From assembly GCA_027382625.1 (NCBI GenBank), contig JAJKFJ010022395.1, forward strand, positions 1 through 64,000: a stretch of 64,000 bases of DNA, read 5' to 3'. The translations under genes were made by a program, and so were the position numbers. This DNA is from Tetmemena sp. SeJ-2015 (taxonomy: Eukaryota; Ciliophora; Spirotrichea; Sporadotrichida; Oxytrichidae). The notes below the pieces were generated by a model. The model was not told where the DNA came from, did not search any database, and saw nothing but the letters and a program-made list of their open reading frames with translations. Positions 4,321-40,834 of the stretch are shown one piece after another (positions within the stretch are counted from its first letter, which is position 1; the number at the start of each line of letters is the position of its first letter).

Positions 4321-7300
4321 GCATTATCTTTTAAAATGGCAAATGGGGGCTGCTTATCTGAGCCATTTCCTAAAGTATATCTTTCTCCATCACCTTATGA
4401 TTTCACAATATCTGCTTCTGTTCAATTAAGCAATGGATATTTTGTGGCAGCTGGTATGACTAACAGCAAGCTATTCCACTCTAGTGTGCAAACAACTGAG
4501 ATGTGGCCTTTTATTCTCCTATTGGAAGACTATTATGCCGATGTTTCAATCGCAAAACAGATCAACACTAATACCTCAAAATATTGTAAGAATGTGAGAA
4601 TTAGTTTTGTTTAATTTAATTCTTTATTAATATACCTGAGAATCTAAAGGAAAATAATTCTTAAATACATGCTCTTCTTGTGCTCTTATCTTTCTTCTTC
4701 TAATTAAAACCTCTTTATTAACGTTAATTTTTAAAAGAATGGCTGCCCCTGACCTCTCCAACTCCATTCAGCAAAAAAAAACGCAGTTTGCTCAACTAGC
4801 ACGGTGAGCTCGGCCCAGCCAGTCTGACCTCCACGACCCCTCCCAGTCAAGCAGCACGCAGCCAGCCCCCGGGGCCCGACCTCAACTCAGTGGCGGCTCA
4901 AACTCCTCACTGACCTTGGGTGGGGTCTGCTCGGAGCTTGCCGAGGGTGAGAGCTAAAGTGGTCGAGGGAGTCGGGGTTCAGCTCCCCGCCCGACTGAGT
5001 TGGGGTCGGCCTCGGTGGCTGGCTGCGTGCTGCTTGACTGAGGGGAGTCGTGGAGGTCAGACTGGCTGGGTCGAGCTCCCGTGCTAGCTTAGCAAACTGC
5101 GTTTTTTTTTGCTGATGGAGTTGGAGAGCGCCCAGGAGAAAGCCATTTTTTTTAAAAATAACTTTAAAATAAAGAGGTTTTAATTAGAAGAAGAAAGATA
5201 AGAGCACAAGAAGAGCAATGTATTTAAGAAAATTTTTTTCCTTTAGATTCTCAGGTATATTTATAATCATGCTAAATTTTAACCTTAAACATGCAATCTA
5301 AAGTTTTATAGGAAGGTTTCTGAAATCTGCCTCATATATCTGGTTTCTCTATCTCATTTAACTGAGCGTTAGGTTTCATAGGTTGCTTGATTATTATTCT
5401 CTAACTTTTTCAAAGGTTCTGATAATTGAAAATAAATGAATTGAAATCGAAGTTAAGAATTTTTTATCAATTAATAAATAATGATTTTTGAAAGCTATTG
5501 GCTTGAGGAGTGGTAAGAACTTCTAGATTTTTATTTAATAATTAAATTTAAATTGGCTTTTTGCAGCTCTGAAAGGCAAAAGGTTGTCACTCTTGGTTGG
5601 GTAGATCTCCACTATGTTAATATGTTCTCTCCAAGAAGGCGTGTTCTTCCTTTGATTGTCCTTGCAAGAAATGATGGGGGGGGGGACAATTCTCAAGGAG
5701 CCCCCAAAAGTATATATCTGAAGTATGAATACTCTGCTTGTTTGCCCTGAAGTCATCAGCAGCTCCAAGCAACCATTTAAAATAATATTTTAAGCATAAA
5801 TCTTCGAAATTGATACCCTTTTGTTAGCTCCTCCTTCTTCACCATTAGGAGTAATTTAAAGTTAAAGCTCAAATAAATAAGTTAAATAAAACTTAAATCA
5901 ACTTATTTTTATAGTTTAATGTGATTATTAGTTTTTGACTGCTCTATGTTGCGGAGTAATCAAAGATATTCAAATCATTAATAGAAATGGAGCCGAAGAT
6001 TAAATTGTGCTCTCTTACTCAGATTCTCAAAATGTCTATTATTGATTTCAAGTTTATTAAACTTTATGAATTACATATTGTTTAAGAATTTTAGTAATCT
6101 TTAATTATTGTAAAAATGCCATTGATTTCGCAAATTTTTTAAATAATGTTCCCAAAAATTGGTAATAAGTTCAATATTTAAGTCATTTGCTTAGGTGAGA
6201 GTTTGATTTAATTTACTTTAGTACACAATAACGAATATAATTACAAGCCACATTAAAAGCAGCATTACCAAAAACTACACAGATAAATTTACTTTCAAGT
6301 TTAGGATAAACCTATCCGAAACTTGAGCATGAATCTTGTGGCACAACTATTGAAGGCACTCAAAATAGTTACCTCCATTTAATGACTTGCGATGAGCCTC
6401 TTCGATAAACTACTGTGAGTTTCTGCTCTAGGTATTGGAAAGCGGAGTTATCATCATTTGAACTTGATAGAAGCTCTGTTTTAGAGTAACTCTCAAGAGG
6501 CATTGGCAGGAGAACTTAGGATAGTCACACTAATGATGGAGCTTGCACTCCCTTCAAATATCATGAAACACTGAAAGGATTGCGTGGTCACATGTCAAGC
6601 TATCCAAAATATCAAACTCCTTGATTAGGTATCAGCCTTTTCATTCTTCTTAAGGATGCAGTGTGGATTTTGTATCAATCCCTCAAATTCACAACTAGAG
6701 CGCCTCGTACTTGAATATGTTTACACGTTCAGCATCCTAAGTAATTTACAAGGACCATACTCTCCTCTCGTTATCTGCTCAGTATCCAAATCTAACTTGG
6801 TATATCATTCTCTCTTAACCCCTTTCTGTATTATTTTTTAAAGGCTAGGCACAAGGAATCCAGGCATGAAGAACTAATTAGACCAACAGCTCCTCGTAGA
6901 GTTATTCAAGAACTGCTGCAATAATCCATTCATACCATTTCCATGTACCATCTCAATCAGCAAGTGCACGAACTCAATAACCGCTTTGATAAATCACAGA
7001 GATAGACTTTCCAGCAAAGAAACAGTGCTTCAAAATTCTGGCAGCAGTCAATCAAGTAAAATGAGCCTTAAGGTGAGAGCTCCGAGGAACTAGCGAGAGG
7101 GTTGTCACGCATCAGCCATTTGCGTTCTTTTCAAATAAAGCCAAAAATGTGATCACCCAAATTGCACAATCATTATCCAGGCATGGGATCTTCAACCCGA
7201 TGAACTCGATTAGCATTTGAGACTTCGAACATGGGATAGTCTACACCTCGTAATAAGATGGAGCAGAAAATGGGTACATCAATCCTCAGTTCATCCACCA

Positions 7301-10300
7301 TGAGTCGCCTTGTGGTGCGTGAATCATCTTTGAAATTATAATGATTATATTTTTAATAATTAAAACTAAATAACTTCACACAGTTTTAATTACACCATTT
7401 GATTATTAAAGAGCTGCATTCCTTATTTCATTTTAATAAATATAACTGCTCTAGCTTTATTATGAATTTTAAAATGGAGAAGACTCACTCTGGCTCGTGA
7501 CTGCAGGTCAGACCTAGTTCATTACTCTTTCAATTTGAGTTTGTTGTCTATCTTTTCTGTGAAAGTTTTGAACCTTCTTGAGTGAATTTCATCATAGATT
7601 TACCTCGTGAGCTCCTCAGTGTCAACATTCTCATCACTCAAATGCTGCTTCTTATTGATGCCCATGTAGTCTTCCTCATAACTAATGAGAGGCGAGTCAA
7701 TCATTTAATCGTCACCGCCAAATAGTTTATGAAAACGCTTCCTTGCCTAAATCACTCCAGCCTATCTACTTGGTGGAAATTACTAATCAGTATCTTCATT
7801 TCTTTGCTGTTATTCTCCTCACGAGTCAGAGTGAGTCTTCTCCATTTTAAAATTCATAATAAAGCTAGAGCAGTTATATTTATTAAAATGAAATAAGGAA
7901 TGCAGCTCTTTAATAATCAAATGGTGTAATTAAAACTGTGTGAAGTTATTTAGTTTTAAATTATTAAAAATATAATCATTATAATTTCAAAGATGATTCA
8001 CGCACCACAAGGCGACTCATGGTGGATGAACTGAGGATTGATGTACCCATTTTCTGCTCCATCTTATTACGAGGTGTAGACTATCCCATGTTCGAAGTCT
8101 CAAATGCTAATCGAGTTCATCGGGTTGAAGATCCCATGCCTGGATAATGATTGTGCAATTTGGGTGATCACATTTTTGGCTTTATTTGAAAAGAACGCAA
8201 ATGGCTGATGCGTGACAACCCTCTCGCTAGTTCCTCGGAGCTCTCACCTTAAGGCTCATTTTACTTGATTGACTGCTGCCAGAATTTTGAAGCACTGTTT
8301 CTTTGCTGGAAAGTCTACCTCTGTGATTTATCAAAGCGGTTATTGAGTTCGTGTACTTGCTGATTGAGATGGTACATGGAAATGGTATGAATGGATTATT
8401 GCAGCAGTTCTTGAATAGCTCTACGAGGAGCTGTTGGTCTAATTAGTTCTTCATGCCTGGATTCCTTGTGCCTAGCCTTTAAAAAATAATACAGAAAGGG
8501 GTTAAGAGAGAATGATATACCAAGTTAGATTTGGATACTGAGCAGATAACGAGAGGAGAGTATGGTCCTTGTAAATTACTTAGGATGCTGAACGTGTAAA
8601 CATATTCAAGTACGAGGCGCTCTAGTTGTGAATTTGAGGGATTGATACAAAATCCACACTGCATCCTTAAGAAGAATGAAAAGGCTGATACCTAATCAAG
8701 GAGTTTGATATTTTGGATAGCTTGACATGTGACCACGCAATCCTTTCAGTGTTTCATGATATTTGAAGGGAGTGCAAGCTCCATCATTAGTGTGACTATC
8801 CTAAGTTCTCCTGCCAATGCCTCTTGAGAGTTACTCTAAAACAGAGCTTCTATCAAGTTCAAATGATGATAACTCCGCTTTCCAATACCTAGAGCAGAAA
8901 CTCACAGTAGTTTATCGAAGAGGCTCATCGCAAGTCATTAAATGGAGGTAACTATTTTGAGTGCCTGCAATAGTTGTGCCACAAGATTCATGCTCAAGTT
9001 TCGGATAGGTTTATCCTAAACTTGAAAGTAAATTTATCTGTGTAGTTTTTGGTAATGCTGCTTTTAATGTGGCTTGTAATTATATTCGTTATTGTGTACT
9101 AAAGTAAATTAAATCAAACTCTCACCTAAGCAAATGACTTAAATATTGAACTTATTACCAATTTTTGGGAACATTATTTAAAAAATTTGCGAAATCAATG
9201 GCATTTTTACAATATTAAATAAATCTTCTAACTTCATCCATGCTTTTTTATTTTACTTCACTTAATTTATAAAGAATTAAACTATGACTAAGGAATTATG
9301 AATAAAATAGTTTCATAAAATTTAAGTAAAAAAAGGAGTTGAAAATAAAATCAAATTTATTTTGTCAATATCTAGTTTATTAGGATATAATAAATAATTG
9401 AATTTTAATTGTATATATTAGATGGTTTTGTTACCCCATTAGTTTTTTCAACTTTAAAATTGAATTTAACTTCCACTCTAGAAATAGTTGAGACTTATAC
9501 TTTTTTTCCATTTATTTTGATTTTTTAAATATTAAATCAGTTTACAAAACATTTGGAGAGAGTTAAGACGTGATTTTTTCACTTAATAAATATGATATAA
9601 AATTGATAATTTTAAATAATTAATATTCTAATTTTAATGATTAGAAATATCTTCTTTTCAATAAATAAAGTAGATTTTTTAAATTAATATAAGAATTTAA
9701 TAAGCAGAGATTCCAATAATTATGTATGAAATAAAAAAAAATATTTGCATACATTAAATCGGATTTTAAAACCTTTTAATCATCACGAAGATGAATTGAT
9801 TTATATTCCTGTTACAGGATTTAAAGTAAGTTTTTGTACTAAATAATATTAATAATGATAAAATAATTTATTGTATTATCATACTAAACAATCTTTTTAA
9901 AAATAAAAATGATTATTTAACAATAGCTTTTATCCATTTTTTAGCATTTAATTTTGATCTTAACCTGCAAGCTTTAAAAGACTTTAAAAAACTCTTTTTG
10001 AGTGGAAATATAAGTTTTATAATGAATATTGAAAATGAGGGGAGCCATAATTTTACTCTGGCAGTGATTCTTTAGCCTCGAGATAAATGATAGCTATTAG
10101 CGAATAGAATGGAGATATTAATTTCATCTCTCTATTCGATATTCCAAGCACCTCTCAATACATTCAAATACAAAAGATAAAATTTGAAAATAGATAAGAA
10201 AGAAAACATTTCTTAAATTAAAACTCTTAATACTTATAAATAAAACATTATATTTATAGAATGAAGTTTTTATACCTAAATACTCGATGAGTATTCTCAA

Positions 10301-13300
10301 GAAATTATGCATTATTATAAATGTTTAATTTATTACATATTGGAATTAACTAAATAATAGAATATCAATATGATTTTTGTTAATGAACGTGCAAATGAAA
10401 AAGAGAAAGCAGCTTTTTAAAAGCCGGATTAACATTTAAGGAGGATTTTTAAGGGAATTGAATTTAAGATTCATTTGCTATTGAGTGGTAAAACTCTTTT
10501 CTGAAATTCTCAATTAGATTTCAAATTAAAATTGTCTAAAAATAATATAAATTAAGCATCTCTGAGTAAATTCTGTCAATCTCTTCGATTCCAAACTTTA
10601 GAAATTATTTATATTATAAAAATATAAACAATGGGAATTCAATTCAGGAATTGAGTCTCACCAAATGGAATAGCTCAATCAAGATTCATACTCTTTAAAA
10701 TTATTTATATTATATGAAATCCAATAGCTTACTTAATATTGACATTTATCAAAATTGGTCAACATTTTTTTAATTGAAGAAGATTATTCAAGAAATTCAA
10801 GTATATTTTATAAAAATTATAATTATTTCCTAACTTTATGATGATTAAAACCGTTTTTAAATAAAAAATACTTCTTGCTTGTATATGATAAAATTAATTT
10901 ATTTTACTTATGAAAAATTTAATTAATTGATTCTATCAAATAAATTTGCTTCTTGGTTTTTCATGGTTACCTTCATCTTCTTATTCCCTCATTGCTGGTG
11001 GTGCATTTCCAACTCAAACTTTGAATACCTAAGGAAATATTTAATTTTAAAACTTTATAAATTAAATTAGTGAAACGTGAAAACTCATTATATTTTAATT
11101 TGCAAAGTTATTTATATGATAACAGCTATAGTAGCAAAATACTGATAACAATTAACTAAAATAGCAACTTATTAAGAAATAAAAATTATCTAAATAAAAC
11201 TCTTTCTTAAGATTAAATTATATCGTAACAACAATGTTCGTTAAAACCTGGAATAATAAACCTGCTTTAATTCACTTTGAGCACTTCTAAATCATTTATT
11301 TTTTAAAATCATAATAAAAATATTCATAATTAATATATTATTGAAAGGGAACACTTACGAAACCACATATTAAGCTGGATTCATAGCCTCTTATAATTAA
11401 TTCAAAAATAAATATATAAGTCTGAATTAAAATTTAAAATCAAACATATATTGACTAATTGTTAATATATTTTATTTTAATATCCTTTGATGCTAGGCCA
11501 CCTATCTATTATAATTTTTTAATAAGTCGAGATTATCTTAGCTCAAATACATTAAACTTAATAAAAAATAAATATATTTTTATAATAAAATTTATTTAAT
11601 CCATAATTATATTTATTATGAAAAATATTTAAGATAAAAATTATTTCTTTCCCTGAAAATATATCTCAAAAATTAATTTTCAAAAGTCCTAAAAATTCGT
11701 CCAAATTTTAGAAAAGTTATTAAGTTTAACACATAAAAAACATTAATGCAAAAAAAATAAAAAATAAAATATTTTGCAACTCAAATCCCTAAATAAAAGT
11801 TATTCCATAAATAATTTTATTGTCCAATATATTCTCACAAATAATTATAATATTTTTGCTTTATTAAACTTTGGAGTCAAACATTTTCATCTGTATCTGA
11901 AACCACTATCGATAGCTATTTTATCTCTAAAATAGTTCTTAACCAGACCTTTTATTCAGAAGATTTATTTGCTTGTACTAGTGGCTAAAATGATCTAAGA
12001 GAGATAATTTGGGTTGGCCAATTTGGGCAGTCATTTTACACTTATAAGGATAAAAAGGCTTATCCTGCTTCCACAATAAATTATATCATTGTAAATATAA
12101 TAAGGATTATTAACAAAAATTTAATGAAGAAAGTTTTTATTTAAAATTGATACTCAATTATAAGATTTAATTAAATCTTTTGTGCCTTCATATATTATTA
12201 AGTTTACACTTAATTTGAGTCATAGTTTGTACTACAATGTCTAGATCAAGATTTAAATTGCCTCAGTTTAGTCTGTGCAGTGGAAAAAATAATTTAAACG
12301 TTAGATTTTGCTAGGATATTTAACCTCTGAGTCATTTTACGAATAGTTTTAAATTTATTGTTGAGTATTTTAAAAAAATATGAAAATTCAAAATTCAAAA
12401 TTAGCTTTTAAGCTTGAGCGAAAGTAATTTTTTGTTGATAGCAATTCTTTTTAGTTCTTAACGATAAGGATATCATATCTCCCTTCAAGTTCTTTTTTAT
12501 ATTGTTGAAAATCTGATTTCTGTTGTCGTTTAGATACATATTAATTTAATTCAAGAATATAAAGAAAAAATATCTGAAAAACTATTCAACTTAATATGTT
12601 GCTTTTTTGAAAACAAATCAATGATCCACAAGTCAACTAATAATTTAAAAATATTTGTCTATATTAGAAAAGTTCTCTATGAAATTTGTTGGTAAATTTA
12701 ATTTAGTATTCAATTAAATTAAAATAGTTATCAATTAAAGTGTATCGAATATAAATAATTATTTTACCATTTCACGAAGCGTAATATTTTGTAATTTTCT
12801 ATTAGAGTAATATTTTAGAGGGATCACCCAGCACAGATTTAGAAGCTATGTTACTTAGCGCTTCATAAAATCTGTCTTCATTTTTGCTACAGAGTATTAT
12901 GTTATACTTACTACTAATATGAAAAAATATTTGGGAGTAGTTAATAATTATTAAAAATTAGTAAATAAGATTTGTCCTATTTAAAAAGTTTGCAGATATT
13001 ATAAAATTCTAAATCATAACATACCTGTTTATCTAATTTTTAACTTTTAACAATAGGGGAGTGCATTGATCTTATTTATGATGATGATACACCTCAAATT
13101 TTTATGCTTGCCTAAGACATTCAAGATCCATTAATACTTCGCTTAGTCATCTTTATTATCAATTTATTATATAAACAAATTATATTTTATAATAAAGATT
13201 AAATTAATTACTCATTTTGCCATTTTCATAAAGTCTTTGGGATTTCTTCTGCTTTTATAATAAAAATATTCGACTTTTTTTATACCAAATTTTAGTATAA

Positions 13301-16300
13301 TAAATTAAACTATATAACTCTAAATGGAACTATTAAGAGTATTTTAAATGATATATGATCAAATTAAAGAATATTAATTTATTTGAAAGAATTTTCTCCC
13401 ATTTTTTTTAATGACTGCATTAATTTCTAAAATAATGTTAAATTAAATCAAATTACAGAATGCAAACATATTGTCTTGAGAATTTTGTTTATATCTCACT
13501 CTTATTAAGCACAAATTATAGATATTAATCAATTTTAATAGATCCTACTTTTTAAAATTTTTCCTTTTTGTTCACTTAATATAAATAAACATAAACATAC
13601 TTTTTGGTAAAATTATCTCCATGTAAAAATAAATTCTAAACATATTTTCTCTTAGTCAATCTTAATTTACCTTTTTTTCTAATCAGATAATAAATTTAGT
13701 TAAATTATAAAAGATCAGAAAATATTTATATTTAATTAAATTTTGGAAGAGTTTTTCAATAAAAGAGACTTCAATAAATATCATATAAATAGTTGTGAAG
13801 GAATCCTCTAGACTTTAATTATTTTTGATAATAAAAATTTTGGATTTTAATTATAATTTATTTAAATATGTTACTTTCATCTTTAGCTTTGATTTCTACT
13901 CATAAAATATATCATTTTGAGCTATCAAGTGATTTCATTAAAACAAAAATTGCTATATTTAAAAGTATTTCAGAGTTTAATACCAACTTAGGTCCATCAT
14001 TTGTGGCCTTAAAACCAATAATTATTACTTCACAGAAGAAAGCATATTCAAAAAATGTAATTAATAAAATTATAAATTTAGCTTTAAAAGCATATACTAT
14101 ACTTTGAGTTATCGAATAAAATAATTATGATTATTCCATTCTAATTAGAAAAAATTAGAATATCTATTTTAATGCAAGAAATGATTACACTCTAAACATT
14201 AAATCATTCAATATAGAAAAATTAATCAGGGGGATGAAAATTTCAGGAGAGTTTTTTAAACTTTCTAAATTTGAAAATGTTTAAGATTCTTTATGCTTCA
14301 AAGGGCAAAAGTAAAATATAATTTTATCTAAACCAACTATTCTCTCTTTATTCTCTTTATTTACTTAATAATATTTGAAATACTTATTTTTAAATAATGG
14401 GAAATTAAATTTAAATGGTTTGATTTAAATTTTGATATTTTATATTTTTAGTAATATTTGTTCTTCAGTTCTTAGTTTTCCTTTTCTGGATGGAATTAAG
14501 ATTATTTTTAAGGTAGCTAGTCTAAATCTTTTATGATATAATATTTTGAATGATTTCAACCGCTGATCTTGAAACTGGATTCGTTGTTACCAGCTACGAC
14601 TTTGTAAACTTGACCTTATCTCAAACTGATGATTCAGTTATTTATTTTAAATAAATTTTAGGGATCATTAATTTTCCTCTTTATTTAATTTTATCTTTAA
14701 TTAATTATTAGAGAAATTGCTAAACCAAACAGTTTTTTAGGTCTCGAAGTATTATTTTATTTTTAAAATTTGCTTCATACATTATATCAGAAATTTTGAA
14801 GAGTCTTTATTTGTAAATAATAATAATAACATTTGTTTTGGTACTTATTTGAATATAAACATAATTTGTATTATTTTAAGAGTATTAAACTATTAAATTG
14901 ATAAACATAAAAAGATATACTTGTAGGATGATATAAAAATAAGCAAATATTTTGTTTTAACTGAACACTTTCTAAGTTTTAAGTAATTATAAGGTTTATA
15001 AGTCTAATTATAAATAAGAAAGTTTCGAGTAAAATAACTCGCCTTAGTTAGTAGTCTTAATTTGATAAAATTTAATTATAATAGTGAATGATGGCTTTTA
15101 TCAATCAAGAAGTTTATTGACTACTCCAACTACTTCAATTGCTACTCAAATTTCCATTGCAAATAGTCAGCGAACTTAAAGGTATGATGAGGTATTCTAT
15201 TTCCGCAATTTTATTCAAACCTTTACTATAAGATGCTTTCCCCTTAAATGAGAGTTCATATGTTAATTAAAATTAAAAGCTTAAATTTTTCTTAAAGATA
15301 GTAAAATATTCCTTTGTGTACTCAGATCCCATTAAGATTTCAAAACTTGGACATCAAAGTGAAATCTTTTTGAAAATATCAATGCAACTTAGGAAAGCTA
15401 ACTTGATTTCATAGTGTATCTAGTTTTTCTTCGATTAAGATAAGTTTTTATTTGAATTATTAAGGTAAGAGAAGGCTTTCTCTTCCATCAAGCTCATCAT
15501 CTCGGATTTAATCAGAACTTAAATTTATTTTATAATTTTTTAAATAATAAATTATTTTAATTCTCCTCCGGCGAATCGGAAAATATATGTTAAGTCTTTA
15601 AGAAATGAAGTAAGAATAATATTTAATAATTTAGAAGACGTATTATCTTTCATAAGTAATTCTTTTATTCAAAATAATCATAAGTTTTTTTCTATTTAAC
15701 AAAATGCCTAAATTATAATTCAGTTGTAATAATCTTTAAACCGATATAAAAATATATGACAGAGAGGAGTATCATCAAAGAGGGCGATTTCGTTATTTAT
15801 TTAACCGTTTGAATGTCCAATATTGCAAAAGTTTATGAAACTTGAATTTGCAAATTTATTTATTTTTTATAATAAAATATTTTTGACTCAAGAAAAATAA
15901 ACTATATTTTAAATAGTTAAAAAAGGATCCCCTAAATAAGATAAGTTAACACTCCTATAGATAGCATATTTACCTATCTAAAATAAATTTGATATTTTTT
16001 AATGACTCTCAAAAAATAACATGAGATATATATATTATGATTTAAATAAATAAATCAAATTAAAAATTAATTTTATAAGGATATTTAAAGTTTCTAATAT
16101 GTGTATATTCTTAAATGATATATTTAAACTATCCTTGTGTTGCTCCATCAAATATTAACTAGCCTATATCTGGAAATTACTGCCCTCATATTGGACTTAT
16201 TACTCCTACTTTTACAGTTGCTGATTTAGGCGGAGATCCCAAAATGCACGATAATAATTGGGGCAAATTTGTAATTATCATTATTATAATACTAAATAAT

Positions 16301-24075: not shown

Positions 24076-24079
24076 TATT

Positions 24080-24545: not shown

Positions 24546-24659
24546 AATTTAGAAACCAATTTATTAAAAAATTAACTTTCTAAATTTAATTATATCCAGC
24601 GAATAAAATTAATTTCTTTTCCTAATTCTCTTCTAGCCAAATTAATATTAATAAAATTA

Positions 24660-28535: not shown

Positions 28536-28585
<50 letters not shown>

Positions 28586-31500
28586 ATATATAATTATATA
28601 AATAATAAATATATAATAAAATAAATATAATAATTATAAAAATTTAGAATTAACTTATGTTAAATAAAGATTTAAAATAATTTAAGCTGTAAAATAAGGA
28701 TGAATCCTATTTTATGCTTGCGAGAGGTTAATAAAAATAATTAACTATCATATAATTTATCTAAATATCAAAATGCTAGATAATTTCATCAATTTTATTT
28801 CTTTTCTTATTATGCTATTTAAGATACAATTTTTGTTCCATTTAATATATTATCATTTTTACTTTTGAATTAACACTAGACTAACACTTTTCATTTTTCA
28901 ACTTTTATTTTCTCATTTGTCTTACAAATCCTATTTAACATTTAAAGATTTATTTTTGTAGAGAAATAACATTTGTAAATTGAATACTAAAAGTATAAGG
29001 GCCATAATTTTACTCTGGCAGTGATTCCTTAATGTCGAGACAAATGATAGCAATAAGTTATTAAAATGGCGCTCTTGATTTCATCTCTCTATTCGATATT
29101 CCAAGCATCTCTCAATACAAATAATTATAAAAGGGGATTATTTTTTAAAAGGATTTAAAACATTTCAGAAATTAAATTCGGTCATAAAATTTTAGTTAAA
29201 TGTTTAATTCCCTTAATGAAAAAATAATAGCGAGATTTTTGTATAAAATAAAATATTCTTCAACTCCATTACATAATCTAAATGAATATTATAAAATATT
29301 TTTGAGAATTTGGTGAGACTTTGTATTTGCTGTGAATTGTGAAATAGTAGAGATGCATGCTTCTATTCACAATAGATATTCTAAATCTAATTATATTTCT
29401 TACAAAAGAAATATAATATAGTAAAAGGGAAAGAAAGAGATTTTAAAACGGACAGATTAAATTTTAACTAGCGTTTTTAAGGGGATAGAATTTTTAAGAT
29501 TTCTACTTTATTTATTAGGTAGAATTCTTACATATAATCCTTAATTAAATTACAATATATAATTGTCATATAATTAAGCACTTCAGAGTAAATTCTATCA
29601 ATTGCTTCAAAGCCAATCAATAAAAATATATGGATTATAAACAATGGAAATGCTATTTAGGAAATGGGTCTCACCAAATGGGATAGTACCATCAAGATTC
29701 ATACTCTTTTAAAATAACAATTAAAATAAACTTAAAAATAAATAGCGGAATATTTTTATAAATTTATATATTTAATACAAATATAATAAACAATACTAAG
29801 CTCAATACATAAGAAAATTAAAAAAATTTATTTTGCACCTTCATTAGTTTTGTTTTAAACTTATAGGAAATATTGAGCCGTATCTTAGTTCTTTTTGATT
29901 TCCAGTATTTTTTAAATTTATTCAATAATGCAGTTTAAAGATAATCTATTCCGCCTTGTTCAATTTCATTCTTCATAAAAGTTTCAGTATTATATCTCTA
30001 ATAGAAGTTTAAGATATTAAAATAATTCATAAAGCCATTTAATTTAGAATAAGATTTTATTACTATAAATATTAATATAAAATATATAATTTAGAGATTA
30101 AAATTACTTACATTCTTTTAATCAAAATCCCAACCCAAAGAAAGATTAGTTTTTTAAAGTATTTTTTTATTGAAATTATATCATTTCTTATTATTAGGAA
30201 AATATTTCACATTTATTCTTTTAAATTACTTTTCTTTTAAAATGAATTTTATTTTTAAAAAATTAAAAGAATATGAAATATTTATGTATTTTGTGTTTTT
30301 ATTAATTCTTTTATAAATTGATTCTCTTAGTTTTTTAGGAAATGCATAATTTTTCTATGCGCTGGTAGCTGGTGGTGCGTTCCCAAAGAAAACTTTGAAT
30401 CCCTAAGGAAAATTTTAATTTTAAACTGATTATTAAATATAAATGAGTAGTTTGAATTAATTTTAATTTATTTAGTTATTTAACAGAAATCTAAATATGA
30501 TCCTTATCTCCTATAAGAATCAGATTTGAATTAGAGATAGCATAGATAGTCAAATTATCTTACTCTAATATACTCTTTTTTTTTCTTCTTTTTTTCTAAC
30601 AAATAATTATCATCGACAATAATAAACTGGATTTTAGTTCGCACAATGCTTTTATAATCAAAGTATTAATTGTAAATCATTAATTATATTTCAGAAAGGA
30701 AATTACGATACCACATATTACCCAGGACTGATAACCTATAATTCAATTTTATCAAAAATAAATAAAATATTACGATATGCATTTATTACTTTAAATTATA
30801 CACTATCATTTTAAAAATAAATTTTCTATATAATCTATAATGTTCAGCCACCTCTCATTGATAAATTTATTTAATAAGACGAGATAATCTTAGCTATAAA
30901 TTTCAAAACTTAATAATATGTTAATACAAAATCTTCTTATAAAAATTACAATTTTCATTAAAAATAGTTTTTATAAACAGATGGATTACTAAAAATGAAA
31001 ATCAAAAACTCCTAAATTTAACATATAGCTATGAGCATTATCACATCTTATTTTTTATATTTATAAACTTAAATTAAGAAATCGAGTGTTATCATTCTCG
31101 CGTCATTATTTTGGTGCCTGATTTTAGAGTTAAAATTAAATTTCTTTCATTAGTTGTTTGCAAATCTCAACTAAGAACTCTCACCAAAATTACAAAAGAT
31201 ATAAAGTTAGATATTAAAATTAATATTATATACTATGGAGTGATAATATTTAAAACTAAAATAGTTGCCCGAAATTAAATTTTTAATGGCTTATTCAGCT
31301 ATCCAATAATTTCTCAGCTATGAAAATATTTTAAAATTAAACTTTGGAGTCGAACATTTTCTTCAATTTCTGGTGCTACTATTGATAACTATTACATCTC
31401 TAAAATATTGCTAACCTAGAACTACTATTTTTCAGACTTATATGCCTGTACTAGTGGCACAAATGCTCAAAGGGAGATAGTTTGGATTGGTTCGTTTGGG

Positions 31501-34500
31501 TCAACTTATGAATCTTATAAGGATAAAAGGATTTATCCTGCTTCCTCAATAAAATATACAATTAGCAAACATAAAATATTTACAATATATTTAGATGACA
31601 GAGGCTAGAAATTAATTGAGAAACAGTTTATTTAATTAGTAATTTTAATATCACCTTTCTTTAGGATTTCAACTCTGAATATTACTTAACTTCAAAATCG
31701 GAAAAGTAAAAATACATAACTGATAGTTAAATATTTTACAATAGGGGAGTGCATTGATCTTATTTATGATTACTAGTCTAAGTTGTTCATGCTAGCTTAA
31801 GATATTTAAGATCCATCAATTCTACGCTTAGTCATCTTTATTTGTCAATTAAATAGGAAAAAATAAATTTTGAATCAATATTTAATAAAATGAAGTTTTT
31901 GAGGCACTTCTTTGTTTCTCGCATTTATGATTTAGTTTTATTTAATTTAATGTTTATAATATTTTAAACATAACTTCATTTCTTTATTTGTATTTGTAAA
32001 GATAATAATCTATTTTTATTTTATCTAAAAGATTAAAACTCTAAAATAATGCCAATTTATTCGTTTTACAGGGCTACTAACCATATTTATCCGAAATATC
32101 TGTTTATCAAAAGTTATGATTAATAAAATATAGATATGAATTCTCTCATTTTATTAAAAAAAACTCCTTTTTGCATTCGAGCTTTAAAAGATTAGTATTT
32201 TTCCTTAACTTTGATAATAAAAAATCATAGGTTAAAGAAATAATAATTAATTTTAATATTACTTTCACCTTTAGCATCGATTACTTCACATAATAAAAAT
32301 TTGTGAGCTATCAGGTGATTTCATCAAAAATCTTATATTTAATTTCAGAGTTTAACACTCTCATAGGTCCTTCAGTTGTAGCTTCAAGACCAACAATTAT
32401 TACTACGCAGTTGAAAGCATATTGCAGCAAACATAATTTATTTTAAATTTCAAAAATATAGACATATAAATATTCCTATAAATTAATAAGCAAAAATTGT
32501 TTTAACTTCTCTCAAATAAAACAGAATAATATTAGCTAAAATAGAGATTATCAAATTTAAGAGAGAAGAAATTATACTATTTAAACACATATGACTCAAA
32601 AATAAATAAAATAGAGGAGAAAATCAAAGGGAAACAAGTATTTCAGTATAAAGCTATCTATATTTAAAAATACTTAATTTTTTCAGACTTAAAGTGCCAA
32701 AGGAAAAATCAAATTAATCTTGATCAACATGCAATACCTCCTTATTTGCTTAAAACTATAATGATAATCTTTATATTAAAATGGTAAAAAATTAACTTAT
32801 TTTTAAGTAAAATTTATTGCGTTATTTAAGTTTTGATATTATAAATTTTTTAGTAATATTTGTTCATAACTTCTTAGTTTTCTTTTACAGGATGGAGCTA
32901 AGATTATTAAGGTAGCTAGTATAAGTCGTTTATGATAAAAATATTTTTAATGATTTCAACCGCTGATCTTGAAACTGGATTTGAAGTTATTAGTTACACT
33001 AGCGTAACTTTCACCTTAACTTAAAGTGATGATACAGTTATTTATTTGCATTAAAATATTAGGGATGATTACTTATCTCGATCTTGCATGAATAAAAATA
33101 AAAATATTTATTATATTAATAAAATGTAAAAGTTCAATCACAAAGGAAAAATTAATTTCTCCAATAGATTAATTATCTAATTTAATTAAACCATCGAAAC
33201 ATTTCAAAGCTTTAATTAATGGAATTATATCTATTTTCTTTTCAACCCAAGAAACTAGATAAGTATTGTATATTTAGCAATACAGTGATAAAAATATTGA
33301 GCTATTTTGAAGCCATTTAATTAAATACAGAAATTAAGGTTAATCAAATATATTTATAATATAAATTTTAAAATTTATACTTTTATTTAAAAGACATCCC
33401 ACAATTTAGATAAGTTGACACTCCTATAGATAGCATATTTGTCTATCCTAAAGTATATATTTTTTAATTCAATTAAATGTCTCAGTTGTAATTTTAGTCA
33501 TTCATCTTTTTAATGATGACCATATTTTTTTAAAAATAATTCTTTAAAATGGGAATAATATAACTCAATCGCAGATGACAAAATATATAATTTCTATATT
33601 CTTTCATCATTAGATATTTTAATTTTTCACAATATCTTTTGAATAAAGATGCTGTGAAACAAAATAAAATACTTATATTTAAAGTTTAACTAAAAAGTCA
33701 AAAGATTGAAGAAATTGGAATATAAATTCTAGCCAGATTTAAATTAATTATATAGCTTAAATGATTAACTCTTATAAATATTTTTTATTAAAAAGTTAAT
33801 GAGTTCAATTTTATCTAAAATAAATTTTTTTCATAATGCTAAATCAGATATATATAATATGCTTAAGGCATTATTTAAAAGACTCTTTTTTTTTAAAAAT
33901 AAATACTTAAACTATCCTTGTGTTGCTCCTGCTAATGTTAACTAGTCTATATCTGGAAATTACTGTCCACATATTGGTCTTTTTTCTCCTACTTTTACTA
34001 CATTCGATTTAGGCGGGGATCCCAAAATGCACGACAATACTTGGGGCTATATTTAATTTTGATCATTTTAGTACTCAATCATTTTAAAATATATTATTAT
34101 TTTAAGGGGCGGCTACTATAATATAAACTAACATTTTAATAAAATTATTTTGAACTTGAAATATAATTATAAGTAAGTGATCTTCTATCTTCAAACGAGG
34201 AGATCATTGTTTATCTTTAAGATTCGTAAGATCTTGTGTTTGGACCTTTGACTTCTAAATGTGGAACTCCTTCTATATTATCAATGAGCTACACCTCAAC
34301 TATAATCATAATTGAAAAAATTAAAATTTGTAAATTTGATTTCTATTATATATAGACGGCACCTATAGATGGACTTCCCTCCTTTATCACTATTTCATAA
34401 TTTAATATTTTTATATATGCTAATTTAAAGCATTATTCCCGCCATTTTGAGAATTCAATTCTATTTGTTAAAGTTATTTTAATTGATTAAATTAAATAAT

Positions 34501-37500
34501 ATCTTCCTTTTAAATTGATCAGAAATTATCTATAAAAATGTTAATTTTGAGAATATGGATGTAGATTAGACTAAGTTAACAATATCGCCTACTCTTAATA
34601 AATATTTTCTCTTAATTTTCTATCCTTCCATAATCATTACATATATTTTCAATTTTTGTATTTTGGTCATTTTCAAAATAAACTTGTTTTAATAAATTTG
34701 ATAAAATGATAGTTTGCATTTAAATTTTCTTGCGAGTGAAATCGATACATACTATCTTAAGTAAGTTAGAGACATATATGGTTTTCAAGATTATTTAATT
34801 TAAATAATTTTTATACCTTTAAAATATAATTTGACAAGAAATACCGTTTCAAATTCTTATTTTATTTTTTATCAAGACATAAGATACATAACAGTTAAAC
34901 TATTGTAAAATAAAAATGAGTTACAAATATTATTTCAGTATTTATCATCTATGATCCCAACTCAGTTGATGATATATTATCATAAATTATTATTGTTATA
35001 TAATTTATTATAAATAATAATTGATTTTTCGAAACAACAAATCAGGCTTGGTGTTATCTGAAAATTTATTACTACTTTCTATAAAAGTTTAGGGATATTA
35101 AATAGAGGGTATGGGATATATTGTCCTCGAACATTGAGGAGCAGTATTCTGAAAAAGGAATATATATCTTAATTTCTTTAGATATGTGAAATTTACGAGG
35201 ATTAGTCCCACCTAAACTAGTACTAGCAAATTTTGATAAAAATTAGGTAAATCTGCGATGCAAAACATAGTGATACAGGCGAATCCCTCTAACAAGAGTT
35301 TGTTTGGCCTTAAAATTTTTTCTCTTAACCAACACGAGATTCCTCACCCCCTTATTTTGTGAATTCAACTAAAGTAATTAAGATCTCATTCTATTTTTTC
35401 TCTCCATAAAACTCTTTCATCTTGTTTTTTATTTTTTATAAATGGATTTCTCAAACTTAAACGTTTAGAGTTAAAGAGACTATAAATGTAATTAGAAAGC
35501 TAGGTTAAGCCTTATTTATTATACATCAATAAGTCTCTTAATCATCTTCAAATTTAGCAAAATGTTTTTATTCTATAAAGGACTCTTTTTAATTATAATA
35601 ATCTGATTCTATTGCTTATCAGATAGAATTATTTTAGTTGCTTCTACTTCAACCATTACTTCAACAACTACTACTTAAACTACTACTATCTCTACGACTA
35701 CTACAATTCCAACCACACAATCTACTGCTAGTCCTATTCTAACAACTCCAGCTCCCTCTACTACTAGAGCATCAAATACTTATTCACCCTCTACAACTAT
35801 TACAGTACAACCGACAACTACAGCGCCATTGTCAATTCCTGCTAATTTGAGGATTTAGTTCAATCGAAGACTTGATAATTTCACTATGGTATTTGGCTTA
35901 TTTGGCAGCTACTATTATAAATGCATTTATAAAAACATAATTTAGATTGTAATTTTAAAATTAAAATACCTTCCATCAATAGTGAGTCCTTATAATAGAC
36001 CATTCTAAGTTTAAGTCACTTTTATTTTAATAAAAATAATAAACTTATAAAATTATTAAATATAATTTACTTAATTTTGTTAGATGATTCATTTAAAGAT
36101 AACCATAATATATTCTAATTCTGAGAGAATAATTTTATTTGAGCATTGAAGTCTCAAATAGAAAATCAAATCGAAAATTAATATAGACGAAGTCTTGCAA
36201 CTCTATTTATTATTTTTGCCAATTAGATATTTTAATTAAATTTTCAACCATTTTAAAATAATTATAATAATATTATTTAATGACTTTAGCAAAAGTATCA
36301 GACTCCCAATTTAAAATTATTAATGAATAATTTACTGTTTAAAATTAATATATTTTATTCATGCATACTTCTTTTAAATTTTATTTATGTTTTAAATTTA
36401 TAACGTACCTGCCTGGCTTGTATAACTTTGTATTCTATCCAACTATTGTTGACTAAATAGGTCCACATGTAGTGGGAGTTTCACTTGTGGATATTTATGA
36501 TCCTGGCAGAAGGACAGACTATACCTTCTTTCTCTTTGTGCTTCCTCCTGATGGTACTACCTATAACTAAACTGCCATCTCCAATACTAATCTTAATTAA
36601 TTTCATTTTAAAAACAATTTTTATAATAATAAATTGCATTATAAATTATAATCCTGATTGGAATTATACAAAGAATGAAGGCAAGTAAGTCAGCTATTTT
36701 TTTGATTTGCTTAATAATGCTCTTGATGTCATAAGTCAAACTCAATAAATACATCTCCTTTAATATAAATATCTATTAAGGATTTTTTTGTTACTTGTGC
36801 TTAAGTTTATTTAATAAGGTAGAAATGGTATGTTTTGATTCGTAATTTTTCTCTCTCAAAATGCTTGGAGCTTAGAAATATATATTTCTTTAAATTTAAA
36901 TTTTAAGAATATTCTTATGCAAATTTTTTGAAATAAAAATATTCTTTTTTATCACAAATAAAATAATGGTTCCTAGTTCATATATAGCTTTTTATCTTGC
37001 TATAAATTAATATTTTTTTAATAATTTTATCATACTCTTTTATATACAAATCCATTGAAATGCAAAACAAACAAAACAAGATATTCTAATTTCGGCTATA
37101 GATATCCTCAGAAGCTTATTTATGAAAACATATAAAAAATAATTATTAAAAGAATATATATTAAAATTATTTGTATTGAGTGCATCTCAAGGGAAGACTT
37201 ACTTGGGCACATTGAATGATACAGTGATTCAATAGATTTACCAGGTAATTGACTTGAAGATAACAGATGAAACCCTAGAAGAATTCCAAGACATCCTCAT
37301 CAACAACTTCGCTCTTGCCCTCACAAGCAGATTTATGAAACTCATTATTCGAGATGCATTCGATCCCAAGTTAGAACCTTGGATTTCGAGAATAGACCTT
37401 TACGGCAGAGTCACTGTTGAATTTGGAAAGGATATTTTATTTTATTTATCGCAGTTTAAAATTCTAAAATGCTCATTTTATTTTAAGTTCCTGCTTCATA

Positions 37501-40500
37501 TAGTGCGCTCAATAATGTTGCTCTTACATTTGCAATCAAGAAAATTTAATCTAACGGTAGATCACTAGCTTTAATCTGTTTAATTTAAAAATAATATAAA
37601 TAAATATACCAAATAGATAAACTAAAGTCATTAGTTTAAACTTTTTGCATTTTCCCATATATAAAATCATTAATTATTAAAGCTGCGTCTGATTCTGAGG
37701 ACTCTATAAAATTTTTTAAAGATATTAAGTTTTTATTTATGATTGAATCTAACTACATTTACCAGAATTTCAAAATAGTTAATTTCCAGAAAAGAAGAAT
37801 GCTAGTCAAGCTTACTTTTTCTAATTCAGGACAAATAAACACTCAAAATGTAAGTTACCAACACTATGAAATATAACTCTCATCTCTATTTAAAACTAAT
37901 TTTTTTTATAGACAAGTGACTATCTAGAGATGAGAATAATCTTACCATAAATATTTACTAAATTTATAAAAGGATTTTCATAGTTAAAAATTATTTAAGG
38001 TAATAAATAAGGTATAAATAAAAGTTTACTTTAGAAATTGATGAGTAATTAGAAGATTTATCACATTTAAATATCTTTTTCTCTTTTTAATTTAATATTT
38101 ATTAAGATAAATATAGGAAATTAAAAATATCTTTAAGAAAATTTAAAAGTAATTTTAATAATCGATAACATAATCTATTTTTAAATTATGCTTTATTCTC
38201 ATCAGATTTATCTTTTCATTAACTTTATATAAATAAAAATAGCGTTAAAAACTAATATATCCAGATTACTATAAGAATAAATATAATAGCCATTTATATT
38301 TACAAAACATAATTATTTGCTGAATGATGAATGGATATTTTATGGCTAGCGACACAAATCTTCCTGTTAAGTATTTGTACACCACTAAAAAGCTTATTCC
38401 TAAATAAGTTGCTAACTGTAAATTATATCCTTCTCAATTTTTTAAAGCTACAATAACTGATGATGTCCAATCAACTACAGACTATCTTAGAAATATCCTT
38501 ATTATTATCAAATTGCAATTAAATCTTTGAAATTCTTCATAAAATAAATCAAAACTTACCAATAAAAATCTTAAGTTAAAGAATAAAGATATTAGTCTTT
38601 TAAAAATATAATTTAATGAAGGCTGCAGCTAAATAAAATGTCATAATTATAAATATATCCAATATAATTATAAATCATTTTAAAAACAGGGATATCAACA
38701 ATCTAAAATTAATATTTTACACTAGTCTAAACACCCTAATGTAATTTAGAAGCATGAAATAAACTTATTAGGGCAACATCACTCCAATTCTTGTGGGGAC
38801 TTCTTAATGCTCTGTAGTTTGTGATTCATATGCCTTTGCTAGATATAAACTTCCCCACAAATGCTCAGGAAATATTTTAGAAGTTAATTGACGTGGTCAC
38901 TTTCGATTTTTTCCCTTCTCAATAAATTCTTAACACTCTATTCGACTTTGAGGATGAGTAACCATTCAATGACCGATTCAACAATCTTGATATCTTTCAA
39001 ATTACTCCACCTCTAATTATTTCTTAACTCATGCACGTTATTAATCTTAGTCGGTGCTTTAAAATCTTGGCTCAAATGATTTTTACTTGGTTGTATTTAT
39101 TGTGCTTACTCCTATCGCTCTTAAATTTTAAATACTCTTGCAATTAAAGCAATCAAATCTAAATCGACCATGTAAACTTTATTTATAGTAATATTTGTTT
39201 AGACTGCAGTATGTTTACTAAAAGCTAGCCGCCTTTCTTTTCTTTAAAAAAATATGATTAACGGTGTGTTACGATTAAAAAAATAATAATTCCTTATTGA
39301 AGGTTACTTGGAAATGCTGCTTACTACACTTGTTAACTTCTACAGTGTAATTCTTTTTATTTTTATTTGGATCGGTTGAACGAAGCAATCAATTCCTTTT
39401 TTCAGTGTGATGAAATAAGATAAATTATATTTATATTTCATCAAATGTAAAAAATAAGTCTCTTATCGTATTTTATAATATCATAAGTCAATTAAATTCA
39501 ACTTGTAATATATCGCTTTTATAACTCTTAATGCTTTAAAAATTTCACCACAATAATTCATAAAATTTACCTATAAAAGTTAAGTAAAAATATAAAATAA
39601 CAGTTTTAATGTAATTTTAGGCTATGTAAAAATCGAGTTTTAAGTATGTTTTAATTTTAAAGGAAGATGGTTGACTTAAGGTTGCCCCCTTTTATATGTC
39701 TATAGTTGAAATTTGGGAATTACACCGATACAGTATCTTCTCTGCTTGCAGTATTTTTTGTTGCTCTCTGTTCCCTGTCTCCAATAGTGGCGCTTTTCCT
39801 TATTCTTATAATCATCGATAATCTAAAGTTAGTGAAACTATTTAAAGTTTCCATATTTTGATTTTATTGCTATAAATAATTTGGTATACATTTTAGTCTA
39901 TCAGTATAAAAATCTGTAAATCTATATATGAATAATAGATTTTGACGAATTAATCTGAATCTAGACTTTAATTTGTTTAATATTAGAGGCTACTCTAACA
40001 AATTGGAGCGCAAAAGTATAAAAGGAATAATAGGCACTCTGTATGAAGGGATAGACACTACAAAGTATTCAGCATAAATTTACATTGGAATATTCTTTAT
40101 CCGCAGATAATCGCTTGCTGCTGTTGCTGTATTTTTTGCCGATTATCCAAGAGTCTATCACTTGTTGTACCTCATTACTCAACAAGTCATCTATCTTTTC
40201 TACATCATTTATTGTAAATTAAATACTCTTATATTAAAAAATGTAGGTATTGTTAAAAAATAAACTGACCCTCATAATCTCTTTGAGAATAAATGTAAAT
40301 AAGTCAATATTTTCCACTATTAAGATCTACTGAAACTTATATTTGCTTCCTTTCTAAATAATTGCTGGATATTAAGCTTAAAATGCAAATAGCATTGTAA
40401 TGAATAAAATATAATTTTAATTGTCAATAAGTATATTAAGTGATTTAAATTTCAGTTAAGCCATTTGAAAGTAGTCTTATGAATGGAATGGAGATCTTTA

Positions 40501-40795
40501 AAAATAAATTAACGAGGTATGCATCCTTGTGATAATCTACCACTTCTTCATCTTTTAAAATGACTACATCGATCTGAAACTCCAAGAATATTTATTTATA
40601 TGCAGGGTGGTCAGTTATCGTGGTTCTATTTTTCTTGATTGGATCAAACTTAATAATACTACTGAGCATGAGCATAATGTAAGTAATTAGTGGATAACAT
40701 TTATAGAAACTTTTATGAATACCTCCAAAGAGTTGTCCTCAGATTTAAACTCTACAGATAGAATGAGATTAAAAACTTCCATAGAATCTAAACAA
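26975..40795 (+). CDS. giant secreted/multi-pass membrane protein, paralogue B (interrupted gene)
   Basis: Coding blocks collinear with paralogue A: 26975-27230, 27841-27953, 29001-29118, 30358-30411, 30703-30900 (two parts), 31342-31545, 31745-31845, 32345-32425, 32865-33060, 33900-34050, 34160-34320, 34360-34400, 34540-34605, 34725-34800, 34938-34975, 35635-36019, 36403-36600, 37165-37444, 37486-37570, 37680-37850, 38320-38520, 38786-39150, 39683-39835, 39985-40215, 40455-40680 and 40708-40795. The architecture is the same: Cys-containing beta domains, LPSFITIS, a Thr-rich stalk, then the membrane region with LWGLLNALQF, LAVFFVALCSLSPIVALFLI, YEGID, a HLLYLITQQ segment and AGWSVIVVLFFLIGSNL. 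This copy keeps every block seen in A plus one more membrane block. It should be anchored at the cell surface by its C-terminal half. Its function is not known to me. The N-terminal signal exon was not found. Confidence 0.65.
27954..29000 (+). other. pointer-flanked intervening sequence (TAAGG), paralogue B
   Basis: TAAGG at 27949-27953 and 28996-29000 in the same codon phase. Joining gives VYY-Trp(UGA)-FQGPQFYSGSDS, so the UGA is in frame and internal. A (TA)n microsatellite lies inside at about 28,537-28,579. Ends are not GT-AG. Confidence 0.6.
28537..28579. repeat. (TA)n microsatellite
   Basis: An uninterrupted TA dinucleotide run of about 43 bp within a non-coding gap of paralogue B. It has no counterpart in unit A. 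Confidence 0.95.
30412..30702 (+). other. pointer-flanked intervening sequence (AAGGAAA), paralogue B
   Basis: The 7-bp repeat AAGGAAA lies at 30405-30411 and 30696-30702 in the same codon phase. Joining gives LNPQGNYDTTYYPG. This gap corresponds to 11035-11348 of copy A, where the shared repeat is AAGG, so the position is conserved while length and repeat differ. Confidence 0.7.
35635..36019 (+). CDS. paralogue B, Thr-rich stalk and beta segment
   Basis: About 75 residues dominated by Thr with Ser and Pro, then NRRLDNFTMVFGLFGSYYYK, then after about 30 nt YLPSIVSPYNRPFQVQV. A mucin-like stalk is the natural reading. The stalk is longer than in A and poorly alignable, while the FGLFGSYY flank is conserved. 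Confidence 0.65.
37165..37570 (+). CDS. paralogue B, conserved extracellular block
   Basis: The block opens with VLSASQGKTYLGTLNDTV, continues through LKITDETLEEFQDILINNF and RFMKLIIRDAFDPK to RIDLYGRVTVEFGKD, and after a 41-bp gap gives FQVPASYSALNNVALTFAIK. It is the best conserved extracellular stretch between the copies, with mostly third-position differences, which fixes the frame on both sides of the gap. Confidence 0.7.
37445..37485 (+). other. 41-bp pointer-flanked intervening sequence, paralogue B
   Basis: The 11-bp repeat ATTTTATTTTA lies at 37434-37444 and 37475-37485 in the same codon phase. Joining one copy links GKDILF to QVPASYS. The same length and place as in copy A despite different repeat sequences. 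Confidence 0.6.
38786..39153. repeat. 368-bp block identical to 22097-22464
   Basis: Base-by-base reading shows no difference between the two copies across this block, which includes the LWGLLNALQF membrane-region coding block and about 30 bp of A+T-rich flank. Neighbouring coding blocks of the two paralogues differ at many sites. Confidence 0.85.
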
Positions 40796-40834
40796 TAAAA
40801 TGTTAAAACTTAAGCATTCAATTTTTATTTATAA

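What the first reader, a model, noticed from the sequence alone, without database searches (positions are those of the whole stretch)
4321..40795. Two paralogous giant genes split by pointer-flanked, non-GT-AG intervening sequences
Seen directly: at many gaps between matched coding blocks the ends share a short direct repeat in the same codon phase, and joining over one repeat copy restores a peptide that agrees between paralogues. Examples: AAGG (A) and AAGGAAA (B) at the LN-QGN junction; TTATAATT; ACTT; CATT; TAAGG; TTTTA and an 11-bp repeat at the GKDI/QVPASYS junction. GT-AG ends are absent at these sites, yet genuine GT-AG introns of 22-39 nt exist nearby, including one in the last exons of both genes. 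Established knowledge: in ciliate germline nuclei, internal eliminated sequences are bounded by such pointers. Inference: this window is germline-like DNA in which the two large genes must be rejoined. Repeats of 2-4 bp are weak alone in A+T-rich DNA; the strength lies in phase agreement across two paralogues.
Basis: partly seen in the sequence, partly recalled or inferred. Interest (0 to 1): 0.9.

Follow-up and report, generated by a model that had tools for sequence, protein, structure and literature searches.

The report
Germline-split ciliate genes, odd intron
Two neighbouring giant genes of an unnamed spirotrich ciliate are cut up by germline DNA inserts flanked by short repeats, a known ciliate habit, and they also carry a conserved intron with AT-AC ends, a type reported as absent from ciliates.

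Summary
The window is spirotrich-type ciliate DNA: TAA/TAG read as Q, C4A4 telomeres, nine contigs starting with exactly 20 bp of telomere. Genes A and B are tandem members of a large family (148 matches to one exon). They are under purifying selection (dN/dS 0.20, 575 codons), so the gaps must be removed. Paralogues lacking individual gaps show what many gaps are: AT-rich inserts of about 10-600 nt flanked by direct repeats of 3-9 bp, frame-restoring when one repeat is kept, and not placeable as GT-AG introns (0 of 21). These are internal eliminated sequences (IESs), a known kind. The surprise is one intervening sequence of another class, at A 22301-22347 and B 38990-39036: ATATCTTT...TTAACT...AC, without flanking repeat, in phase 1. 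Cutting it restores frame in 22 of 22 loci tested. A paralogue lacks it exactly, and another organism's predicted protein appears to read into the same intron. This looks like a U12-type AT-AC intron. Of four minor snRNAs sought, only a U6atac candidate was found.

The parts
4321..24116 (+). gene A: giant, many-piece gene of a large tandem family, hydrophobic C-terminal part
   Evidence: blocks matched to B; dN/dS 0.20 over 575 codons in 12 blocks; family hits. No Pfam family above its cut-off for a composite made from paralogue C4164; A itself was not scanned. Ends approximate.
26975..40827 (+). gene B: tandem paralogue of A; contig C4273 is 98.1% identical to 27677-44320, probably the other haplotype
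   Evidence: Ends approximate.
11031..11344 (+). A: IES at LN-QGN, repeat AAGG
   Evidence: phase agrees with B; no empty-site paralogue examined
30405..30695 (+). B: IES at LN-QGN, repeat AAGGAAA
   Evidence: no empty-site paralogue examined
20890..20901 (+). A: micro-IES 1 (12 nt) inside GKD-I, repeat TAT
   Evidence: uninterrupted paralogues L050, L051/L052, L064
20908..20939 (+). A: micro-IES 2 (32 nt) at A-VPASYS, repeat AGTT
37433..37446 (+). B: micro-IES 1 (14 nt), repeat TAT
37453..37485 (+). B: micro-IES 2 (33 nt), repeat AGTT
22301..22347 (+). A: AT-AC intron of 47 nt (ATATCTTT...TTCTTAACTCATGCAC), phase 1, U12-like
38990..39036 (+). B: the same AT-AC intron
22429..22445 (+). A: 17-nt micro-IES after LTPIA, repeat CTCTT
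   Evidence: L026, L030 and L062 read through this site (by eye)
39118..39134 (+). B: 17-nt micro-IES after LTPIA, repeat CTCTT
38741..38771 (+). B: ordinary 31-nt GT-AG intron; lost from A by a 31-nt deletion that keeps frame
   Evidence: GTAA..[CT]AG at this site in 14 of 20 loci
39172..39202 (+). B: 31-nt GT-AG intron
   Evidence: frame on both sides not fully resolved
23133..23397 (+). A only: 265-nt insert with long imperfect terminal inverted repeats and 9-bp direct repeat GGAGTTTTC (second copy 23398-23406); B, L014, L018 and L019 lack it
   Evidence: joined reading YIGVFFVRRIS matches B YIGIFFIRRQS
6100..9219 (.). 3.1-kb near-perfect palindrome (1.4-kb arms, 99.5% identical) inserted in A, absent from B
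4624..5266 (.). 643-bp palindrome in A (83% identical arms)

Best explanation
The window is mainly germline (micronuclear) DNA of a spirotrich ciliate. Genes A and B are transcribed after the germline copy is processed into a somatic chromosome. During that processing each AT-rich insert is cut out together with one copy of its flanking repeat (the pointer), rejoining the coding blocks in frame. After transcription, ordinary GT-AG introns of about 31 nt and one conserved AT-AC intron are spliced out. Shown here: inserts, repeats, frame restoration, empty-site paralogues, purifying selection, a telomere-capped form in the same assembly. Inferred: that removal is at the DNA level for these genes, and that the AT-AC intron is removed from RNA, probably by minor-type (U12-like) splicing.
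For: Code: intact neighbour gene (M14 carboxypeptidase, 951 aa) uses TAA/TAG as Q. Telomeres: 67 exact C4A4 sites, nine contigs starting at base 1 with exactly CCCCAAAACCCCAAAACCCC (its reversed control is the same word and so says nothing); C334 ends in telomere where C3499 and C4490 run on. Empty sites: 11 inserts with repeats of 9, 7, 7, 6, 6, 6, 5, 5, 5, 4 and 3 bp whose removal joins homologous coding sequence; exact repeat of at least 5 bp in 9 of 24 inserts of 30 nt or more against 1.5% of random pairs; no GT-AG placement in 21 of 21 usable rows (a 22nd, L036 955 nt, is a regex artefact). The two micro-IESs at GKDI sum to 43, 44, 45, 46 or 47 nt, all three residues mod 3, in seven loci whose flanking frames are conserved. 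Selection: dN/dS 0.20. AT-AC intron: 22 of 22 loci in frame (18 distinct plus 4 alleles), read-through 3 of 22; L062 lacks it exactly; the tail DIFKNIKTKQTQEFNSIKL of predicted protein P0121 can encode the same intron in one way only (52 nt, branch spacing 9); U6atac candidate above the Rfam gathering score.
Against: No somatic DNA or RNA for A or B was available; no match lies in an open frame longer than 166 aa, so no obviously joined family member was seen. The 10-kb comparison of C334 with C3499 was only 88-91% identical and gave no clean somatic/germline IES pair. Fifteen of the 24 inserts had exact repeats below 5 bp, 13 of them below 3 bp, several probably in introns or flanks. In L014 (300 nt), L058 (813 nt) and L043 (54 nt) the joined reading was not clearly homologous. 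U12, U4atac, U11 and the U11/U12 25K domain were not found (heuristic, controls silent). The U6atac candidate's 5'-site box (AACUGAGAGA) pairs poorly with ATATCTTT.
Confidence: 0.88

Rival explanations
1. The gaps are unconventional introns removed from RNA at direct repeats, comparable to the non-GT-AG introns of euglenozoans, not DNA eliminations.
For: The data are genome sequence only; no obviously joined copy of these genes was seen. Non-canonical introns are in print for diplonemids (PMC12621601, search listing only).
Against: Gaps down to 10-14 nt are too short for introns; the organism has spirotrich telomere-ended contigs; pointer-flanked IESs are the rule in spirotrichs (PMC9797194 passages; PMC10901763 section 18).
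Confidence: 0.05
2. A and B are decaying pseudogenes riddled with transposon insertions; the repeats are target-site duplications and nothing is removed.
For: The A insert at 23133-23397 has terminal inverted repeats and a 9-bp duplication like a transposon; big palindromes sit in A.
Against: dN/dS 0.20 over 575 codons; gaps at the same position with different lengths mod 3 in seven loci whose flanking frames stay conserved.
Confidence: 0.05
3. The AT-AC sequence is itself an IES and not an intron.
For: It lies among IESs and is AT-rich; IES-intron interconversion is in print (PMC9797194 passage; PMC1805493 passages).
Against: It has no direct repeat at its ends, but nucleotide-invariant ATATCTTT and a conserved TAACT 8-9 nt before the 3' end, unlike the IESs examined here. 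P0121 appears to read into it; if P0121 comes from somatic Oxytricha DNA, as I recall from its number, somatic DNA keeps it.
Confidence: 0.12
4. The AT-AC intron is real but is removed by the major spliceosome; no minor spliceosome is present.
For: U12, U4atac, U11 and the 25K domain were not found; Alveolata are reported without minor introns (PMC10639083 passage); the U6atac candidate does not pair well with the 5' site.
Against: U6atac candidate at 36.3 bits distinct from ten U6 genes at 85.5-102.6 bits; 5' site and branch sequence resemble U12 consensus (recalled).
Confidence: 0.4

Closest known systems
Spirotrich internal eliminated sequences with variable pointers (Oxytricha, Tetmemena, Halteria, Strombidium)
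   Same: AT-rich inserts in coding sequence, direct repeats of diverse sequence mostly under 10 bp, one copy kept, positions shared between genes with different pointer sequence (PMC9797194 passages; PMC10901763 section 18)
   Different: Here shown in a giant tandem gene family of another spirotrich, with micro-gaps of 10-17 nt; elimination inferred, not observed
Paramecium and Euplotes vannus IESs
   Same: Short germline inserts inside exons
   Different: Those are bounded mostly by TA (PMC10901763 section 18); here repeats are longer and varied
U12-type AT-AC introns of the minor spliceosome
   Same: AT-AC ends, ATATCYTT-like start, TTCCTTAAC-like branch 8-9 nt before the 3' end (consensus recalled)
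   Different: 5' site has T for the second C in all loci; ciliates and Alveolata are reported to lack such introns (PMC1805493 passage; PMC10639083 passage; PMC9505925 passage)

Membership tests
Spirotrich IES | insert flanked by a direct repeat, one copy kept in the joined product | tested here: met
   exact repeat of at least 5 bp in 9 of 24 inserts of 30 nt or more against 1.5% of random pairs; 11 inserts checked by joined homologous reading
Spirotrich IES | not placeable as a GT-AG intron | tested here: met
   0 of 21 usable rows (one further row is an artefact)
Spirotrich IES | absent from somatic DNA of the same locus | not testable with these tools
   no somatic copy of A or B seen; one telomere-capped contig compared, no clean pair
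Spirotrich IES | organism is a spirotrich with telomere-capped somatic chromosomes | tested here: met
   C4A4 telomeres, 20-bp contig starts, telomere added where germline contigs run on; the 18S search did not complete
U12-type intron | AT-AC (or GT-AG) ends with start RTATCCTT | tested here: inconclusive
   AT-AC in 20 of 22, AT-AA in 2; start ATATCTTT invariant, one base off the recalled consensus
U12-type intron | branch sequence TTCCTTAAC about 8-15 nt from the 3' end | tested here: met
   [CT]TAAC[TCA] was required by the search, spacing 8-9 nt in all 22; full TCCTTAACT in L023 only
U12-type intron | minor spliceosomal RNAs in the genome | tested here: inconclusive
   U6atac candidate; U12, U4atac, U11 no hit
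U12-type intron | removed from RNA | not testable with these tools
   no RNA data; indirect support from P0121

The most novel reading that the evidence does not exclude
Spirotrich ciliates keep U12-type AT-AC introns and at least part of a minor spliceosome (U6atac), contrary to the published view that ciliates and all Alveolata lack them. The intron has stayed at one position through the radiation of a large gene family and is shared with another spirotrich, in genes that also need DNA-level rejoining.
Probability: 0.5. Interest if true: 0.85.

Novelty: new member of a known kind. Interest (0 to 1): 0.62.

Why it matters
The germline inserts themselves are a known ciliate phenomenon, here in a new species and gene family, with a clean set of paralogous empty sites that can be used to study how IESs come and go. 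The AT-AC intron matters more: if it is spliced by minor-type machinery, the minor spliceosome was not lost at the base of the alveolates, and annotated ciliate proteins that stop after DIF-like read-through may be wrongly predicted. It also puts three removal systems (IES excision, GT-AG splicing, AT-AC splicing) within a few hundred bases of one gene.

Tried and rejected
The junction readings TTTTA and 11 bp at GKDI were rejected after the comparison of 30 loci. An early idea that GKDI/QVPASYS is a GT-AG intron was rejected: removing GT..AAG breaks the frame. An alternative reading of the AT-AC site as coding DIF...LTHARY, or as an IES with pointer TCTT, was rejected because spacing to the next exon varies by one base (8 or 9 nt) between loci. 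C4273 was checked as a possible somatic copy of B; it is a 98.1% identical copy with the gaps, probably a second germline haplotype. C334 against C3499 gave no clean somatic/germline IES pair. A codon-usage gene finder failed on this family. Scans for further U12-like introns in the window and in 173 kb of non-family loci left, judged by eye, only the A and B sites and the C4273 copy in a coding setting (reversed-pattern control 3 matches). The genome-wide pattern search for U12-like introns and the 18S search did not complete. Protein homologues: none at E 0.001 for one query (7994 best-sharing candidates scored), one weak hit, P0121, for the other.

Papers: PMC9505925, PMC9797194, PMC1805493, PMC10639083 and PMC10946202 were seen as passages; PMC10901763 as abstract, outline and section 18; PMC12621601 as listing only. 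PMC10946202 states that all snRNAs were found in P. cristata and O. trifallax after a search that included the minor ones, without saying which. Searches for minor splicing in ciliates. That P0121 (eukprot:403356052) is an Oxytricha protein predicted from somatic DNA is recalled from its number, not from a call.
Full report
What the DNA is. The window is the first 64 kb of contig C3117 (166,353 bp) in a 146-Mb, 5213-contig assembly. The intact neighbour gene at 56634-59486 (-), a cytosolic carboxypeptidase, is open for 951 codons with TAA and TAG read as glutamine and TGA as stop. Among the 120 rows shown of its 469 matches the named spirotrichs are Stylonychia (36%), Moneuplotes (36%) and Halteria (35%), so the species is not close to these. 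The assembly holds 67 exact C4A4 telomere sites; nine contigs begin at base 1 with exactly CCCCAAAACCCCAAAACCCC, which is how I recall hypotrich somatic chromosome ends. Contig C334 ends in telomere at a point where C3499 and C4490, 98% and 96% identical over the last 1.5 kb, run on into other sequence. So germline-type and telomere-capped forms are both present, and the window's contig belongs with the long germline type.

The genes. A and B are tandem paralogues; a spacer repeat recurs at 514-1182, 24537-25208 and 40835-41368. One exon of the pair has 148 matches in the genome (20 loci fetched), another 43 (30 loci fetched), many in tandem arrays. No Pfam family reached its cut-off for a composite protein built from paralogue C4164. 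One database protein, P0121, matches at 47% identity over 19% of the query region. Over 575 codons in 12 blocks A and B differ with pS 0.38 and pN 0.10, dN/dS 0.20; the identical 368-bp tract was not used. Both genes are, or were until recently, functional, so whatever splits them has to be removed.

Which gaps are what. Comparing family members with and without a gap separates three classes.

Class 1, pointer-flanked inserts. A carries a 265-nt insert with terminal inverted repeats and the 9-bp repeat GGAGTTTTC (23133-23397); B, L014, L018 and L019 lack it, and removal gives YIGVFFVRRIS against YIGIFFIRRQS in B. L028 carries a 134-nt insert with TTGGCTC inside LGSQNFYL; L024 a 194-nt insert with TACTCTT and a 48-nt insert with GAGAT; L025 a 167-nt insert with AGATGC; L042 inserts of 515 nt (GCTTA) and 85 nt (AAGAAT); L043 602 nt (GCTT); L050 38 nt (AATTCA); C4164 392 nt (TGACA); L053 11 nt (GTT). 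One search listed 66 inserts of 8 nt or more; of the 24 of at least 30 nt (near-identical L019, L044, L059 dropped), 9 have an exact repeat of at least 5 bp against 1.5% of 400 random pairs per case. The other 15 have less; several lie in introns or flanks or have imprecise edges. Where an insert had several alignments the longest repeat was kept, a small bias that the control lacks. In 21 usable rows none allows a GT-AG placement (one further row was an artefact of my pattern).

The GKDI/QVPASYS junction. Seven distinct close paralogues (A, B, L038, L039, L040, L041, L046) and one allele (L037) have two micro-gaps there, 10-14 nt and 32-34 nt long, around a short coding island. More distant members (L050, L051/L052, L064, L062) read straight through; L053 has an 11-nt gap only; the remaining loci of the 30 have other gaps at or near the site or do not reach it, and were not resolved. 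The two lengths sum to 43, 44, 45, 46 or 47 nt, all three residues mod 3, while the flanking frames stay conserved, which is what excision predicts.

Class 2, ordinary GT-AG introns of about 31 nt. The edge of the LWGLLNALQ exon is one in B (38741-38771); a GTAA..[CT]AG sequence stands at this place in 14 of 20 loci, not in L011 (A), L016, L018, L019, L026 and L027. A has lost it with a 31-nt deletion that happens to keep frame.

Class 3, an AT-AC intron. After the codons RF..L all 20 aligned loci carry GATATCTTT (in L024 displaced by an insert), then A[C/A]|G 46-98 nt later. Cutting ATATCTTT...A[C/A] restores frame into GY..xx(V/I)L..LGS in 22 of 22 loci tested: 18 distinct plus 4 alleles; L041, L054 and L064 could not be tested because the exon lies outside the locus or is unresolved, and most of the 148 matches were not fetched. 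Ends are AC in 20 and AA in 2; 19 of 22 are 46-53 nt long, 3 are 90 or 98; read-through contains an LGS word in frame in 3 of 22. [CT]TAAC[TCA], required by the search, stands 8-9 nt before the 3' end in all. Of 25 third-codon positions before the junction only 1 is invariant in 16 loci, while all nine bases of GATATCTTT are (the motif was the key for that set, but one search had it in 20 of 20). The distant paralogue L062 has no insert and reads ...YNDRFDEL-GYSSSNIIYNLGSNNFY in one frame, the exact junction predicted. There is no direct repeat at the ends. P0121 ends ...NFIDMDIFKNIKTKQTQEFNSIKL: aligned at the same place, the tail can encode GATATCTTT, a [CT]TAAC branch and A[CA]|G in exactly one way, giving a 52-nt phase-1 intron with spacing 9. 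About 3.5% of random tails after a forced DIF fit (701 of 20000), and DIF at a given place has a chance near 0.0002. If P0121 is predicted from somatic Oxytricha DNA, as I recall, the sequence survives DNA processing and is an intron.

Machinery. A U6atac candidate scores 36.3 bits (gathering 33) over the full model at C2058:322072-322174, beside genes with in-frame TAA/TAG; ten U6 genes score 85.5-102.6 bits elsewhere. U12, U4atac, U11 and the U11/U12 25K domain gave no hit; those searches use a loose first look and their controls were silent, so absence is not shown. The candidate's box that should pair with the 5' site does not fit ATATCTTT well. Minor-type splicing is therefore the likeliest reading of the intron's form, not a demonstrated one.

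What is known. Pointer-flanked IESs, shared positions with changed pointers, and intron-IES conversion are in print for spirotrichs (PMC9797194 passages; PMC10901763 section 18; PMC1805493 passages). [quoted passage not shown] PMC10946202 reports all snRNAs in two hypotrichs without saying whether the minor ones are meant.

Verdict. The AT-AC intron in the same genes is the part a specialist would find surprising.

Noticed in passing
22097-22464 and 38786-39153: A and B are identical over 368 bp while their surroundings are about 80% alike: a sharp gene-conversion tract that contains the exon, the AT-AC intron and a micro-IES.
   Followed up: partly
6100-9219 and 4624-5266: Two palindromic elements in A (arms 1.4 kb at 99.5% identity; 643 bp at 83%); the larger is absent from B, has ends ATTGTAAAAATGCC and no Pfam match in its 242-aa frame.
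   Followed up: partly
L065 1501-1603 (C2058:322072-322174): U6atac candidate, full length, ends in a run of T, beside code-6 reading frames.
   Followed up: partly
G000 contigs C3464, C948, C1352: Several ABC transporter domains in long stop-free frames on contigs up to 366 kb; these look like bacterial contigs in the assembly, not checked further.
   Followed up: no
C3178, C3079, C2879, C2595, C3217, C3448: Contigs with several matches each to the same gene family, probably further tandem arrays and a large set of split paralogues for IES gain and loss studies.
   Followed up: partly
A 22429-22445, B 39118-39134, L014-L020, L022 at the same site: Micro-gap of 17-26 nt after LTPIA in ten loci measured with drifting repeats (CTCTT, TTGCT, AATTGCT); by eye absent from L026, L030 and L062.
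   Followed up: partly
L028/L029 within the AT-AC intron: The 98-nt version of the AT-AC intron may hold an IES inside it (repeat CTTT, 53 nt excised, 45 nt left).
   Followed up: partly
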